NCBI RefSeq assembly: GCF_900119915.1
Contig: NZ_LT635455.1
Coordinates: 1,798,001-1,862,000 of the forward strand
Direction of reading: 5' to 3'
Source: Olsenella timonensis
GTDB taxonomy: Bacteria; Actinomycetota; Coriobacteriia; Coriobacteriales; Atopobiaceae
Length of the DNA stretch: 64,000 bases
A model generated the notes under the pieces. The model ran no database searches. It was not told where the DNA came from and worked only from the letters and a program-made list of their open reading frames with translations. The position numbers were made by a program, and so were the translations under genes. Of the stretch, positions 13,578 to 62,950 are shown piece by piece (the stretch's first letter is position 1; each line of letters opens with the position of its first letter).

Positions 13578-13660
13578 GGCAGGACTCCTCACGATCGGCC
13601 CTGGTTTCCGACCAGGGCGGGGGCTGTCTTGGTTCCGACCAAGACACAATAGCCGTTGGA
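13578..13660 (-). promoter_or_regulatory. Structured 5' leader of rpmE (candidate L31 autoregulatory leader)
   Basis: Two successive hairpins precede the start: arms GTCTTGGT/ACCAAGAC around a CGGA loop (13626-13645), and CCCTGGT/ACCAGGG around CGGAA (13599-13617). Both present the motif TGGTCGGAA. A TATACT-like -10 lies just upstream (about 13659-13664). L31 leader RNAs are known in several bacterial groups; identity with a described class was not tested. Confidence 0.6.
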
Positions 13661-58895: not shown

Positions 58896-59558
58896 ATGAC
58901 AAGGGACGAGTTTCTTGCCCGACTCCGCGAGGACGACGAGTACGCCCCGGGCTGGCAGGCCATCGACGACGCCTTCGAGAGGCTCTACCCAGGGCAGCTC
59001 CCCGAGCACTACGGGACGAACCTGCACGCCAGGGCGATGTTCGGCGGCAACGAGTACCTGGACGGCTTCTCCTTCTACACCTCCCCGAAGGGCTACAAGC
59101 ACCTGGTTACCTATGGGATGACCGTGCTCTACGGCGACGAGGACGCCTTCGGGGGCACGCGCAACGGCTGGGGCTACGAGATGACGATGAAGCTCGCCGA
59201 GAAGGACGTCGAGGAGTGCCTCTGGGCGATCAGCACGATGTCCAGCCTGGCGAGATACACGTACACGACCGGTCGCCCCACCCTTCCGGGGGCGTGCATC
59301 AGGGGCGACGGGAGCCCCCTTCGCATCGGCTCGGACTCCCTGATCACGGCGCTCCTTCTGGTGGAGGACACGGAGGCCGAGCCCCAGACGTCCGTGTACG
59401 GAGAAACCAGGTTCGTCCAGCTCGTCGGGATAACCGCCGCCGAGGCGCAGGCGATCGCCGACGACCATGACAACGCCGGCCGGCTGGTCGAGCTCATGAG
59501 GGCCGACGGCAACGTGGACCTGGTCACCGACATGAGCAGGACCGCGTCGTACCTCTGA
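58896..59558 (+). CDS. Suppressor-of-fused (SUFU)-domain protein
   Basis: This 220-residue cytoplasmic protein starts MTRDEFLARL and has GWQAIDDAFERLYPGQLPEH, LDGFSFYTSPKGYKHLVTYG and MTVLYGD, the pattern of bacterial SUFU-domain proteins. Many such proteins act as immunity proteins in toxin systems or as lone genes. No toxin is seen next to it. It follows the LemA-like gene by 27 bases. Confidence 0.75.
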   Translation: MTRDEFLARLREDDEYAPGWQAIDDAFERLYPGQLPEHYGTNLHARAMFGGNEYLDGFSFYTSPKGYKHLVTYGMTVLYGDEDAFGGTRNGWGYEMTMKLAEKDVEECLWAISTMSSLARYTYTTGRPTLPGACIRGDGSPLRIGSDSLITALLLVEDTEAEPQTSVYGETRFVQLVGITAAEAQAIADDHDNAGRLVELMRADGNVDLVTDMSRTASYL

Positions 59559-59595
59559 TTCCCCATGCCCGGCGCCGCGCGGCACGCGCTTGGTC

Positions 59596-59601
59596 TACAA
59601 T
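59596..59601 (+). promoter_or_regulatory. -10 element of the magnesium-type module
   Basis: TACAAT lies about 34 bases before the leader peptide start at 59636, in a gap of 156 bases after the SUFU gene, giving a short leader that includes the small frame. A -35 was not obvious. Confidence 0.4.
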
Positions 59602-59635
59602 ACACACGGCAAATCCACCTAGGAGAAAGGTCCGC

Positions 59636-59662
59636 ATGAAACCTCGACCTCACAGTCGATGA
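59636..59662 (+). CDS. Leader peptide MKPRPHSR upstream of the MgtE/CBS-like gene
   Basis: An eight-codon frame (ATG to TGA at 59660-59662) with ribosome site AGGAGAAAGG. Its codons are unusual for this GC-rich genome: CCT twice, CGA twice, and AGT. Two prolines and two arginines sit in positions 3-8. It ends 52 bases before the start of a predicted magnesium-related operon. Short Pro-rich leader peptides control Mg2+ transporter genes in enterobacteria (mgtL/mgtA). Function here is inference. Confidence 0.5.
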   Translation: MKPRPHSR

Positions 59663-59714
59663 CCTGCGGCGTACCCTGCGGCGCGCCGGTGAGCGACGCG
59701 CGTAAGGAGCACGA

Positions 59715-61589
59715 ATGATCTACCTGTCCCAACTCCTGGGCAACCCCGTACTTGACGCCGACGGCGAGAAGGTCGGCACGGTCTCCGACCTTGGCATCGC
59801 CACGGGCGAGGTCTTCCCCCGCATCACGAGCCTGGCCTTCATGGGCCAGGGGCGCACGCCGATCATGATCAGCTGGCGCAAGTACGTGGACACCTACGAC
59901 GAGCACGAGGTCCGCCTCAAGGTCATCGCCACGGACCTGCGCTTCTCGTACCTGCAGCCGGACGAGGTCCTTCTCGCCCGAGACATCCTCAACAAGCAGA
60001 TCGTCGACACGCATGGGATGCGCGTCGTGCGCGTGAACGACCTCAAGCTCTCCGACACGAGCTCCACCCAGCTGCGCCTGCTCGGCGCCGAGGTGGGCGC
60101 GCGCGGCCTGCTGAGGAGCCTCCACCCGGCGCTCGAGCGCGTCGCGCTGCGCGTGTGCCGCACCTTCGGCCACCCGCTGCCCGAGAAGATCATCGCGTGG
60201 AGCTACATGGACCTCGTGGAGCGCGACCTCTCCAACGTCAAGCTCTCCGTCTCCCACAAGACGCTCGACGACATGCACCCCGCCGACATCGCCGACATCA
60301 TCGAGCGGCTGGACCCGCGTCTGCGCGGCCAGGTCTTCGCGCAGCTCGACGACGAGCAGCGCGCCGGCGCCATGGCCGAGTTCGACGACGACGCGATGGC
60401 CGCCGAGCTCATGGGCGCCATGAACGAGCGGGACGCCTCGCGCATCCTCTCCGAGATGGACCCCGACGACGCCGCCGAGCTCGTCTCCGAGCTCGACTAC
60501 GACAAGGCCGAGAAGCTCCTGCGCCTGATGGGCGTCCAGGAGCAGCGCGCCATCCGTCAGCTGCTGGGCTACCGCGAGAACACCGCGGGCCGCATCATGA
60601 CCTCCGAGGTGGCCACCGTGAGCGAGGATGGCACCGTAGCAGACGCCGTCGCGATGCTGCGCGGGCTGGACGAGGACTTTGAGGCCGTGCGCTACGTCTA
60701 CCTCGTGGACGACTCCGGGAAGCTCGCCGGCGTCGTGACGCTGAACGCGCTCATCGCCGCCGAGGCCGAGACCCGCCTCTGCGACATAGCGACCGCCGAG
60801 CTGGTGACCGCGAGCCCCGAGGACGACCAGGAGGACGTCGCCGAGGACATCGCGAAGTACAACCTCCTGGCCATGCCCGTCGTCAACGACGAGGGCCGCC
60901 TCCTGGGCATCGTCACCGTGGACGACGCCCTGGACGTCCTGGAGGAGGAGCATGCCGAGGACCTGCGCGTCGCCGGCGGCTCCGCGGACGGCGAGGACTC
61001 CGGGCACGCGAGCACGCTCATCTGGCTCGTGCGCCGCAACGCGTGGGTGGCGCTGTGGGCGCTCGGCGTGGTGGCGCTCGCGCTGGCCGTGGGCGGGCGC
61101 CTCACGCTGGCCGAGACCCTCACGATCGCGATCCCGCTCGCCGTCGCGCTCGTGCTCGCGGACGACTCCATCTCCTACGTCACCAACTTCTTCCTGGAGA
61201 ACGACCCCGACGACGAGGACACCCCTTCCATGCTCGGCTTCACGTGCAAGGGCGTGGGCATCGGAGCGGCGCTCGCCGCCCTTCTCGCCCTGATCGTCGT
61301 CGCGCTCACGAGCGTCCTGCTCTCGCCCGCGGTCCCCACGGCGGGCGCGTTCGAGGGCGGCCTCGGCGACGCCCTGGTCACGGGCGGCTTCGCGGCGGCG
61401 GCGAGCACCTTCGTCTCGTTCGCGCTCTCGCCCGTCTACCTGGGGGTCCTGCGCCGCCGCGACGACGCCAACAAGGAGACCTCGGGGTTCACGCTCTCGG
61501 TCGTGGCCATGCTGGTGGGCGCGACGGTCTTCGTGGCCGCGGCGCTGCTGCTCGCCGGGCCCGGCGGCATGGTGGGGGCGGGACTCTAG
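59715..61589 (+). CDS. MgtE-like sensor-membrane protein (PRC barrels, MgtE_N, CBS pair, 5 TM)
   Basis: This 624-residue protein has two PRC-barrel-like segments (about 3-80 and 88-150), an MgtE N-terminal superhelix (about 185-293; ADIADIIERLDPRLRGQVFA), and a CBS pair (about 296-415). Five membrane helices (about 440-460, 468-492, 508-536, 550-578, 592-614) follow. MgtE_N and CBS domains sense Mg2+ in MgtE channels, but the membrane part lacks the recognisable MgtE pore sequence. ATG 59715 follows AAGGAG perfectly. It is coupled to the NRAMP gene with one base between stop and start. Confidence 0.8.
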   Translation: MIYLSQLLGNPVLDADGEKVGTVSDLGIATGEVFPRITSLAFMGQGRTPIMISWRKYVDTYDEHEVRLKVIATDLRFSYLQPDEVLLARDILNKQIVDTHGMRVVRVNDLKLSDTSSTQLRLLGAEVGARGLLRSLHPALERVALRVCRTFGHPLPEKIIAWSYMDLVERDLSNVKLSVSHKTLDDMHPADIADIIERLDPRLRGQVFAQLDDEQRAGAMAEFDDDAMAAELMGAMNERDASRILSEMDPDDAAELVSELDYDKAEKLLRLMGVQEQRAIRQLLGYRENTAGRIMTSEVATVSEDGTVADAVAMLRGLDEDFEAVRYVYLVDDSGKLAGVVTLNALIAAEAETRLCDIATAELVTASPEDDQEDVAEDIAKYNLLAMPVVNDEGRLLGIVTVDDALDVLEEEHAEDLRVAGGSADGEDSGHASTLIWLVRRNAWVALWALGVVALALAVGGRLTLAETLTIAIPLAVALVLADDSISYVTNFFLENDPDDEDTPSMLGFTCKGVGIGAALAALLALIVVALTSVLLSPAVPTAGAFEGGLGDALVTGGFAAAASTFVSFALSPVYLGVLRRRDDANKETSGFTLSVVAMLVGATVFVAAALLLAGPGGMVGAGL

Positions 61590-61590
61590 G

Positions 61591-62859
61591 ATGTCACTCG
61601 GCGAGAAGAGCCCCGCGGGCGAGGGGGGCGAACGCACGCGCCTGCGGCCACGCCTCATCCTGGCGGCGATGGGCCCCGGCATGGTTGCCGCCCTCGCGGG
61701 CGCGGACGCCGGCGGCGTGGCCACGTACTCCAACGCCGGCGCGCTCTTCGGCTTCAACCAGCTCTGGACCGTTCCCATCATGTGCTTCCTGCTCATCGTG
61801 GCGCAGGAGACCGCGGCGCGCATGGGCTGCGTCACCGGCAAGGGCCTCGCGTCGCTCATCCGCGAGCAGTTTGGCGTGCGCCTCTCCGCCCTCGCCATGC
61901 TCGCGCTCCTCGTCTCCAACACCACGGTCACGCTCTCGGAGTTCGCGGGCATCGCGTCGGCGCTGGCCCTCTTCGGCGTGCCGGTCTACGTGAGCGTTCC
62001 GGTGGCGGCCCTGGCCATCTGGCTGCTCACGATGAGCGGCTCGTACCGCCGGATCGAGAAGGTCCTTCTCGCCATCGCGTGCGTCTTCGTGACTTACATC
62101 GTCGCCGGCGTCATGGTGGGCCCCGACTGGGGCGACGCCCTGCTGCACACGGTGGTCCCGCACGTCGAGGCCACGCCGCGCTACCTGTCTCTGCTGGTGG
62201 CAAGCGTGGGCACGGCCATCGCGCCCTGGATGCTCTTCCTCGCCCAGTCCAACGTGGTCGAGAAGAACGCCCACGCCGAGGACCTCCCCTACCAGCGCAT
62301 CGACACCGTGACCGGAGCCGTGGCCGCGAGCGTCATCTCGTGGTTCATCATCCTCACCACCGGAGCCGTGCTGCACCCCGCCGGCATCGAGGTCAGCGGG
62401 GCCGAGGACGCTGCCGCCGCGCTCGCGCCGCTCGTGGGCGACTACGCCGAGTTGCTCTTCGGCGCGGGCCTGGCCGGGGCGTCGCTGCTTGCCGCGTGCG
62501 TGCTGCCTGGCATCACGTCGAGCGCGATCTGCGAGGCCTTTGGCTGGGAGCGCGGGGCCGACCGCAGCTGGGCGGAGGCGCCCGTCTATCGGGGCATCAT
62601 CACCGCGGTCATCGCCGTCTCCGCGCTGGTCGTGATGCTGCCCGACGTCAACCTCTTCGGCATCATGATGGTCGCCCAGGTTATCAACGGCGTGCTGCTG
62701 CCCGTCATTCTCGTCTTCATGGTGCTTATCGCCAGCGACCGGCACGTCATGGGGCGCCACGCCAACGGGCGCGGCTGGAACGCCCTCACCTGGTTCACGA
62801 TCGTCGCGGTGACCCTGCTCACCCTGGTCATGTTTGCGATGCAGGCCCTCGGCCTGTAA
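61591..62859 (+). CDS. NRAMP-related divalent metal transporter, predicted Mg2+ type (NRMT-like)
   Basis: This 422-residue membrane protein of the SLC11/NRAMP fold has about eleven helices. The metal site is not the usual one: helix 1 has DAGG (GADAGGVATYSNAG) where transition-metal NRAMPs have DPGN, and helix 6 has APW where they have MPH, losing the sulfur ligand. NRAMP-related magnesium transporters, described from Eggerthella lenta, have altered sites of this sort. Coupling to an MgtE/CBS-type protein supports Mg2+ (or a mixed Mg2+/Mn2+) as substrate. Confidence 0.8.
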   Translation: MSLGEKSPAGEGGERTRLRPRLILAAMGPGMVAALAGADAGGVATYSNAGALFGFNQLWTVPIMCFLLIVAQETAARMGCVTGKGLASLIREQFGVRLSALAMLALLVSNTTVTLSEFAGIASALALFGVPVYVSVPVAALAIWLLTMSGSYRRIEKVLLAIACVFVTYIVAGVMVGPDWGDALLHTVVPHVEATPRYLSLLVASVGTAIAPWMLFLAQSNVVEKNAHAEDLPYQRIDTVTGAVAASVISWFIILTTGAVLHPAGIEVSGAEDAAAALAPLVGDYAELLFGAGLAGASLLAACVLPGITSSAICEAFGWERGADRSWAEAPVYRGIITAVIAVSALVVMLPDVNLFGIMMVAQVINGVLLPVILVFMVLIASDRHVMGRHANGRGWNALTWFTIVAVTLLTLVMFAMQALGL

Positions 62860-62860
62860 A

Positions 62861-62936
62861 CCAAAGGGGTCGGGTCCATTTTTGCAGAACTTCTTGATAT
62901 CAAACGGTTCTGTCAAAATGGACCCGACCCCTTTGG
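62861..62936. repeat. 76-bp palindromic repeat, family H copy 2
   Basis: Same length, outer arms CCAAAGGGGTCGGGTCC and central TTGATATCAA as 54530-54605. Two arm positions differ from copy 1 on both sides so that pairing is kept (for example C-G becomes A-T). It lies two bases after the NRAMP stop and could terminate the module. Confidence 0.9.
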
Positions 62937-62950
62937 CAGACGGAGGGCAG

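What the first reader, a model, noticed from the sequence alone, without database searches (positions are those of the whole stretch)
59596..62859. Candidate magnesium module: rare-codon leader peptide, MgtE/CBS sensor and NRAMP-related transporter
Three elements in one transcript point to Mg2+. A small Pro/Arg frame sits in the leader. An MgtE_N-CBS protein has its own five-helix membrane part. Directly coupled (one base apart) is an NRAMP-fold transporter whose metal site has lost the soft ligand. MgtE_N and CBS domains gate MgtE by sensing Mg2+; here they may gate or regulate a different transporter. I know of no described system with this exact composition, but the literature could not be searched.
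Basis: partly seen in the sequence, partly recalled or inferred. Interest (0 to 1): 0.75.

Follow-up and report, generated by a model that had tools for sequence, protein, structure and literature searches.

The report
Leader-peptide switch before magnesium-uptake operon
An Olsenella-like gut bacterium carries a magnesium-uptake gene pair of a known type, preceded by a tiny, strongly conserved rare-codon peptide gene that probably works as a ribosome-operated switch for making the transporter.

Summary
The three elements are real, but the gene pair is known. Gene B (61591-62859) is an NRAMP-related Mg2+ transporter, closest to the solved Eggerthella lenta EleNRMT (E 1.7e-146, same metal-site residues). 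Linkage of such genes to an MgtE-N gene was published in 2014 (PMC4072509). Gene A (59715-61589) is a PRC barrel plus a full MgtE layout; its five-helix part resembles the MgtE membrane domain but lacks the pore motif, so it is probably a membrane-bound Mg2+-sensing regulator. The new part is the leader. The 8-codon frame MKPRPHSR* (59636-59662) recurs upstream of gene A in 87 of 90 Coriobacteriia loci (strict motif 84 of 90, against 7 of 1800 control windows). Its core is P-x-S-x-stop, with rare codons held fixed (AAA 67/67 and CGA 67/67 in KPRP forms; AGT 53/53). RNA behind it pairs with gene A's ribosome-binding site and covaries in four family groups. Deeper families carry an M-box Mg2+ riboswitch before the same operon (46 of 56 M-box genomes). 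My literature searches found no description of this leader. Best reading: a translational attenuator for Mg2+ uptake, built like Salmonella mgtQ. The signal and the direction of switching are inferred.

The parts
59596..59601 (+). TACAAT, possible -10 promoter element (by eye)
   Evidence: the same TACAAT stands at this place in several same-genus leaders printed; function not tested
59621..59630 (+). AGGAGAAAGG, ribosome-binding site of the leader frame
   Evidence: GAGAAAGG/GAGAAGG-like stretches precede most leader frames printed
59636..59662 (+). leader peptide frame MKPRPHSR* (AAA CCT CGA CCT CAC AGT CGA TGA)
   Evidence: conserved in 87 of 90 loci; codons fixed; rare codons
59632..59636 (+). 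5' strand of stem enclosing the leader frame (CCGCA)
   Evidence: paired with 59665-59669 in the fold of the same-genus locus L003 and largely so in the window fold; P1 permutation test is group-dependent
59665..59669 (+). 3' strand of that stem (TGCGG); same segment opens the stop-proximal hairpin P2 in relatives
59670..59677 (+). anti-SD candidate (CGTACCCT)
   Evidence: pairs with the SD of gene A in the predicted fold; own-pair excess within families; weaker in the window than in L002-L004
59704..59709 (+). AAGGAG, ribosome-binding site of gene A
   Evidence: sequestered more than in shuffled-linker controls across 106 loci
59715..61589 (+). gene A: PRC + MgtE_N + two CBS + MgtE-like five-helix membrane domain without pore motif (624 aa)
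61591..62859 (+). gene B: NRAMP-related Mg2+ transporter (NRMT), 422 aa
   Evidence: metal-site residues D39, G42, E117, T208, A211, W213

Best explanation
A Mg2+-uptake operon. Gene B imports Mg2+. Gene A is an MgtE-derived, membrane-anchored cytosolic Mg2+ sensor that probably throttles B when internal Mg2+ is high. The leader is a translational attenuator: the RNA behind it folds so that gene A's ribosome-binding site is paired with an anti-SD; a ribosome slowed on the rare, proline-containing leader codons, as expected at low Mg2+, opens the stem around the leader frame, lets the stop-proximal segment pair elsewhere, and so frees the ribosome-binding site. Shown by sequence comparison: conserved leader frame and codons, anti-SD:SD covariation, NRMT identity of B, MgtE-like fold of A with lost pore motif, M-box on orthologous operons. 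Inferred: that Mg2+ is the signal, the direction of switching, and the A-B interaction.
For: NRMT: closest solved relative EleNRMT, E 1.7e-146, next 8.3e-27, same diagnostic residues. Linkage 89 of 90 loci. Leader 87 of 90, 134 loci in all, 121 distinct. Fixed rare codons. anti-SD:SD own pairs beat within-family permutations: 0, 1, 0, 0 of 5000 reach the observed value; SD exposure 0.277 vs 0.39 with shuffled linkers, n=106. Hairpin starting at the leader stop: -20.6 vs -13.8 kcal/mol, n=111. M-box upstream of gene A in 46 of 56 M-box genomes of the class, with the leader between M-box and gene A in L060 and L066. Fusion of gene A's sensor part to a Mg2+ P-type ATPase (TIGR01524 1099 and 1077 bits, cut-off 610.75). 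Precedent: mgtQ (passages).
Against: Simulated ribosome positions changed SD exposure little (+0.02 at start or third codon, none at Ser or stop). Loop-confined pairing of hairpin and SD was no better than shuffles (-9.37 vs -9.34). The window's own leader folds no better than shuffles (z 0.28) and is too short-linked to be in the n=111 set. P2 arms do not covary significantly in Coriobacteriaceae (451 of 5000) and P1 not in Eggerthellaceae (347 of 5000). Leader motif lost or changed in Slackia-type loci L077, L199, L201 and absent in L074. A relative of B with an MgtE-N neighbour transported mainly Mn2+ and its partner gave no benefit (Acidobacterium, passages of PMC4072509).
Confidence: 0.55

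Rival explanations
1. The leader is a translational attenuator but senses charged tRNA or general translation speed (Arg, Pro, His, Ser, rare codons), not Mg2+ as such.
For: Rare, nearly fixed codons AAA/CGA/AGT look like decoding control; Salmonella mgtP responds to charged tRNA-Pro (stated in passages of PMC8092293).
Against: It stands before a Mg2+ operon in the class, one true site per genome in the 54 genomes hit, and beside an M-box in deeper families.
Confidence: 0.2
2. Peptide arrest at the leader stop: the P-x-S-x end of the nascent chain holds the terminating ribosome, in the way of TnaC or of type II proline-rich antimicrobial peptides, and this melts the hairpin that starts at the stop codon.
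For: The conserved core is at the C-terminal end next to the stop; the hairpin starts at the stop codon; the likeness of MKPRPHSR/MKPRPYRR to drosocin is a resemblance seen in a search listing.
Against: The last residue varies freely; the fixed synonymous codons are not explained by the peptide; masking a ribosome at the stop did not raise SD exposure in nested folding.
Confidence: 0.12
3. The conserved leader is an RNA element, and the frame is incidental.
For: Fixed third positions AAA, CGA, AGT; in Olsenella relatives AGT becomes CGT with change of the amino acid; an inner CGAC:GTCG hairpin is possible in 43 of 44 Atopobiaceae leaders.
Against: Start codons ATG/GTG/TTG 44/55/22 and stops TGA/TAG/TAA 56/53/12 exchange freely, Pro third positions vary, frame length varies by whole codons; the inner hairpin is possible in only 14 of 25 Coriobacteriaceae and 0 of 2 deep leaders with CGAC while AGT stays.
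Confidence: 0.05
4. Gene A is itself a Mg2+ channel (a divergent MgtE), and B is an independent transporter.
For: MgtE layout and fold; forms of A with a membrane part but no B within the fetched stretch in L129-L136 and L149.
Against: GGNxGxQ motif and helix-5 Asp absent in all 15 gene-A rows aligned; two invariant positions in 33 membrane domains; about 450-aa copies without that domain in Eggerthellaceae; below the TIGR00400 cut-off.
Confidence: 0.07
5. The operon serves Mn2+ rather than Mg2+.
For: A. capsulatum NrmT with an MgtE-N neighbour behaves as a Mn2+ transporter (passages); EleNRMT also carries Mn2+ (passages).
Against: Binding-site residues identical to EleNRMT at six positions; M-box on orthologous operons.
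Confidence: 0.08

Closest known systems
NrmT with adjacent MgtE-N gene, Shin et al. 2014 (PMC4072509; passages read)
   Same: NRAMP-related transporter beside a gene with the MgtE cytosolic domain; M-box in some operons; feedback regulation proposed there
   Different: [quoted passage not shown] here it has a PRC barrel and an MgtE-like membrane part. The passages mention no leader peptide, and the words Eggerthella, Collinsella, Atopobium, Actinobacteria, uORF and peptide do not occur in the main text
EleNRMT (PDB 7QIA; PMC8806188, passages read)
   Same: Gene B: same diagnostic metal-site residues; same class of bacteria
   Different: The passages read do not treat the partner gene or the leader
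MgtE Mg2+ channel (PDB 2ZY9, 5X9H, 4U9L)
   Same: MgtE_N, CBS pair and membrane-domain fold
   Different: Extra PRC barrel; pore motif and helix-5 Asp lost; TIGR00400 197.2 bits, cut-off 232.75
Salmonella mgtQ, 8-aa uORF before mgtB (PMC8092293, passages read)
   Same: 8-codon uORF, translational control of a Mg2+ transporter, ribosome-binding site sequestered in one of two alternative structures
   Different: mgtQ lies between mgtC and mgtB and works through Asp/Glu; MKPRPHSR has none
Salmonella MgtL (PMC6460261, passages read)
   Same: Leader frame before a Mg2+ transporter gene with Pro at positions 3 and 5
   Different: MgtL has Pro also at 7 and 9, is longer, and acts on transcription elongation
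M-box riboswitch RF00380
   Same: Controls the orthologous operon in deeper Coriobacteriia
   Different: Not detected in the window or elsewhere in its genome

Membership tests
NRMT (NRAMP-related Mg2+ transporter) | closest to characterised NRMT, not to MntH-type NRAMPs | tested here: met
   EleNRMT E 1.7e-146; next chain 8.3e-27
NRMT (NRAMP-related Mg2+ transporter) | metal site: Asn to Gly on helix 1, Met to Ala and extra Thr on helix 6 | tested here: met
   D39, G42, T208, A211, W213 aligned to D55, G58, T224, A227, W229
NRMT (NRAMP-related Mg2+ transporter) | Mg2+ transport | not testable with these tools
   needs uptake assay
MgtE channel (gene A) | MgtE_N and CBS domains | tested here: met
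   PF03448 E 3.1e-24, PF00571 E 5.7e-22
MgtE channel (gene A) | MgtE membrane-domain fold | tested here: met
   membrane part alone: five best entries are MgtE, Z 11.5-12.9 over 164-165 residues, next 8.3. Caveat: the tool warns that Z under about 13 for helical bundles can be a common arrangement; Foldseek E only 0.03; PF01769 not found by sequence
MgtE channel (gene A) | pore motif GGNxGxQ and helix-5 Asp (recalled; seen in canonical row L256) | tested here: not met
   absent in 15 of 15 gene-A rows
MgtE channel (gene A) | NCBIfam TIGR00400 cut-off | tested here: not met
   197.2 bits against 232.75
M-box riboswitch (window leader) | match to RF00380 | tested here: not met
   no match in the window at gathering score, none in 59400-62900 up to E 5, none in the own genome
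Leader-peptide translational attenuator | short translated frame with ribosome-binding site, conserved upstream of the operon | tested here: met
   translation itself inferred from codon exchange patterns
Leader-peptide translational attenuator | ribosome-binding site of the downstream gene sequestered | tested here: met
   permutation and shuffle tests; window alone not significant
Leader-peptide translational attenuator | alternative structure released by a ribosome on the leader | tested here: inconclusive
   P1/P2 alternatives supported in part of the groups; ribosome simulation shows little effect
mgtQ-type acidic destabilising leader | Asp/Glu codons near the start | tested here: not met
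   no Asp or Glu in MKPRPHSR; a few variants elsewhere carry one or two (MKDRPHSR, LKVRERKPVSK, VNEHPHSN, VSNHDHPHSK, VRDHDHPHST, VSGLDHPHSC)
[quoted passage not shown]
   resemblance only (listing and memory)

The most novel reading that the evidence does not exclude
A new class of Mg2+-responsive, ribosome-read switch in Actinomycetota: a rare-codon leader ending in P-x-S(AGT)-x-stop that pauses ribosomes when Mg2+ is low and thereby unlocks translation of an NRAMP-type Mg2+ importer and its MgtE-derived governor. It stood in tandem with the M-box riboswitch in deeper Coriobacteriia and took over where the M-box was lost (Atopobiaceae, Coriobacteriaceae, Eggerthellaceae).
Probability: 0.3. 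Interest if true: 0.8.

Novelty: new variant of a known kind. Interest (0 to 1): 0.62.

Why it matters
The Mg2+-linked leader peptides in the passages I read are from Salmonella. A class-wide leader in gut Actinomycetota, before the operon type that holds the solved NRMT, would be a comparable switch in an unrelated lineage with an unrelated importer. The fixed rare codons allow a clean test of codon versus peptide sensing. M-box plus leader in deeper families, and leader alone in three others, offers a natural case of one Mg2+ sensor standing in for another. Gene A, an MgtE without pore motif next to one transporter and, as a fused domain, joined to another (a Mg2+ ATPase), bears on the question left open in 2014 of what the MgtE-like neighbour of NrmT does.

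Tried and rejected
M-box in the window: none. A second frame whose ATG (59659) overlaps the leader stop and which ends on the start of gene A looked like a chain of coupled frames: of 121 leaders 33 have such an ATG and only 5 of these frames end at the start of gene A (window, L002, L017, L029, L167), so it is not conserved. Inner hairpin as the reason for fixed AGT: not general. Loop-confined pseudoknot between the stop-proximal hairpin and the SD: no better than shuffles. Simulated ribosome positions: little effect. Leader outside Coriobacteriia: 0 of 40 loci by the same kind of motif. The KPRPHS DNA pattern outside the class gave 8 scattered sites in 7 genomes; I opened 2 of these 8, and both in-class stray sites: all 4 run on in open frames without a stop soon after PHS. 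The two in-class strays (G045, and the second site of G164; both AAG and AGC) were dropped from the codon count. A first search for canonical MgtE rows failed; only L249 and L256 served as such rows.

No paper on this leader was found with the searches (listings and starts of abstracts seen); the library lacks most subscription journals. Not done: modelling of the A-B complex (single chains only), a covariance model of the leader, any search of viral or metagenome collections.
Full report
Observation. The window holds a short frame ATG AAA CCT CGA CCT CAC AGT CGA TGA at 59636-59662 behind a good ribosome-binding site, then gene A (59715-61589, 624 aa) and, one base after its stop codon, gene B (61591-62859, 422 aa). 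Gene A has PRC, MgtE_N and CBS domains; gene B is an Nramp protein. The genome is held as one contig of 2,176,737 bases. The family names used below (f1 Atopobiaceae, f3 Coriobacteriaceae, f2 Eggerthellaceae, the rest 'deep') are my assignment from such named matches.

Gene B. Its closest solved relative is EleNRMT (7QIA, E 1.7e-146; next 8.3e-27). D55, G58, E133, T224, A227 and W229 of EleNRMT correspond to D39, G42, E117, T208, A211 and W213 (alignment; their meaning from passages of PMC8806188). The lost soft ligand is thus the NRMT signature. Transport by gene B itself was not tested.

Gene pair. I examined 90 loci (the window and 89 from the 180 of 197 class genomes with a gene-A match). 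Gene B follows on the same strand in 89; the exception is L059. Of 80 named loci 64 hold B; of 40 other Actinomycetota loci 23 do. The association is not new: Shin et al. 2014 state that most NrmT genes have a neighbour homologous to the MgtE cytosolic domain, that many are under M-box control, and suggest feedback regulation. They also report that the A. capsulatum pair behaves as a Mn2+ system and that its MgtE-like gene gave no further benefit (passages).

Gene A. The whole model (pTM 0.40) aligns with MgtE from residue 182 to 615, Z 19.8, 400 residues, rmsd 17.5. The membrane part predicted alone (pLDDT 91.5) gives MgtE as the five best entries, Z 11.5-12.9 over 164-165 residues, next 8.3. 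The tool warns that Z under about 13 can be a common arrangement for helical bundles, and Foldseek's E-value is only 0.03. A continuous layout PRC-MgtE_N-CBS-membrane makes homology the likelier reading. The GGNxGxQ motif and the helix-5 Asp of MgtE are absent in all 15 gene-A rows aligned (the motif is recalled and visible in row L256). Only two positions are invariant in 33 membrane domains, while the cytosolic part is strongly conserved. The Eggerthellaceae copies are about 450 aa and lack that part. PF01769 was found in 1 of 60 Coriobacteriales genomes and not in the own genome; the own genome has two CorA matches and no MgtA match over the cut-off. In two genomes, one agreeing with the record of Candidatus Geothermincola secundus, the PRC-MgtE_N-CBS part is fused to a Mg2+-translocating P-type ATPase: TIGR01524 1099.3 and 1077.4 bits against a cut-off of 610.75. 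So I read gene A as an MgtE-derived Mg2+-sensing regulator whose sensor part has been combined with different transporters. Regulation is inference.

Leader. The strict motif (start, 1-9 codons, Pro, any, AGT, 1-5 codons, stop) lies within 450 bases upstream of gene A in 84 of 90 loci and in 7 of 1800 random control windows; with CGT allowed for AGT it is 87 of 90. The remaining three are L059 (no B), L074 (M-box, no leader) and L077 (LKVRKHNIHLM). Among the 80 named loci it is in 47. The 33 misses are 28 loci outside the class or not placed in it, two truncated contigs (L189, L192), L198, and the two Slackia loci L199 and L201, which keep an LKVRKH frame without PHS. Together: 134 loci, 121 distinct leaders; some genomes occur in both sets. 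Peptides: MKPRPHSR (Atopobiaceae), VKSKPRPHSR, VKPKPRPHSS (Coriobacteriaceae), LKVRKSKPHSK/M/N (Eggerthellaceae), VKPHSP, VTPFSP, VTPSSP, VRPFSR, VSGLDHPHSC and others (deep). Starts ATG/GTG/TTG 44/55/22, stops TGA/TAG/TAA 56/53/12 and varying third positions of the Pro codon speak for translation. In the 67 KPRP forms Lys is AAA 67 of 67 and Arg is CGA 67 of 67; in other forms Lys before that Pro is AAA in 28 and AAG in 6. Ser is AGT in 117 of 121, CGT (Arg) in 4, but that set was chosen by AGT or CGT. The unbiased count is the class-wide pattern search allowing AAR, CGN and AGY: 53 of 53 leader sites have AAA, CGA and AGT; two stray sites were dropped. These codons make up 1.4, 5.1 and 2.2% of their amino acids in 30 long frames of the window. 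The 54 genomes hit have one leader site each or, in G045, a stray only.

RNA. Pairing between the stretch behind the leader stop and the SD of gene A is stronger in own pairs than after permutation, over all 87 loci (0 of 2000) and within families: 0 (Atopobiaceae), 1 (Coriobacteriaceae), 0 (Eggerthellaceae) and 0 (deep) of 5000. The SD is less exposed than with shuffled linkers, 0.277 versus 0.39, n=106 (the p-value of 2e-8 ignores relatedness). A hairpin (P2) starts at the leader stop, -20.6 versus -13.8 kcal/mol for shuffles, n=111; loci with short linkers, the window among them, were left out. Its arms beat permutations in three groups (0 of 5000) but not in Coriobacteriaceae (451 of 5000). 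A stem (P1) enclosing the frame is supported in Coriobacteriaceae (0) and deep families (4), weakly in Atopobiaceae (53) and not in Eggerthellaceae (347 of 5000). Results against the switch: nested folding with a ribosome placed on the leader raised SD exposure only by 0.02 at the start or third codon and not at the Ser or stop codon; loop-confined pairing was no better than shuffles (-9.37 versus -9.34); the window's own leader folds no better than shuffles, z 0.28, against -2.24 (L003) and -1.89 (L016). So sequestration of the ribosome-binding site is supported by comparison; the switching step is a hypothesis.

Magnesium link. The M-box occurs in 56 of 197 class genomes, none of them Atopobiaceae. 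In 46 of the 56 the aptamer ends 132-350 bases (median 230) before gene A on the same strand. Of the other ten, G105 has it 1589 bases upstream, G171 far away on the same contig, and eight have it on contigs without a gene-A entry in the table I used. The single M-boxes of f2 (G156) and f3 (G171) are not before gene A. In L060 and L066 the leader lies between M-box and gene A. L073 and L075 have a leader and no listed M-box. M-boxes also precede gene A in three of the non-Coriobacteriia loci scanned (L128, L137, L142). Thus the orthologous operon is under a Mg2+ riboswitch in deeper families, while in the Atopobiaceae, Coriobacteriaceae and Eggerthellaceae searched only the leader was found before it.

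Mechanism. [quoted passage not shown] The alternating prolines recall MgtL (passages of PMC6460261). I propose that low Mg2+ slows ribosomes on the rare, Pro-containing codons and so releases the ribosome-binding site of gene A, and that the protein of gene A then limits B by sensing Mg2+. Signal and direction are inferred. The chief alternative within the same frame is arrest at the stop codon by the peptide; the likeness to drosocin rests on a listing and memory.

Novelty. The gene pair is known. The leader, and gene A with PRC and a pore-less MgtE membrane part, were not found described in the searches. I rate the whole as a new variant of a known kind.

Noticed in passing
L126 281-4231 (-), L127 293-4243 (-); same contig as L217: PRC-MgtE_N-CBS fused to a Mg2+-translocating P-type ATPase (1317 aa) in two Actinomycetota genomes, one matching the record of Candidatus Geothermincola secundus: a MgtA-type pump with a built-in MgtE-type sensor.
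   Followed up: partly
L129-L136, L149: Gene A with a membrane part (about 600 aa) but no NRAMP gene in the fetched stretch; downstream frames were not identified.
   Followed up: partly
L059 (G171): Diverged gene A (45% identity) without gene B and without leader; the genome's M-box lies elsewhere on the same contig.
   Followed up: no
L077, L199, L201: Slackia-type leaders keep the LKVRKH start but have lost PHS (LKVRKHNIHLM in L077); possibly decaying or changed leaders.
   Followed up: partly
window 62860-62937: By eye, a long inverted repeat (AAAGGGGTCGGGTCCATTTT ... AAAATGGACCCGACCCCTTT) right behind gene B, terminator-like or a small mobile-element remnant (sequence).
   Followed up: no
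window 58896-59558 (+): Frame upstream of the leader encodes a SUFU-domain protein, PF05076 E 3.2e-28.
   Followed up: partly
window 13585-13618 (-): L31-Coriobacteria ribosomal protein leader RF03128, 42.7 bits; L31 counteracts mgtQ-type ribosome destabilisation in Salmonella (passages), no link shown here.
   Followed up: no
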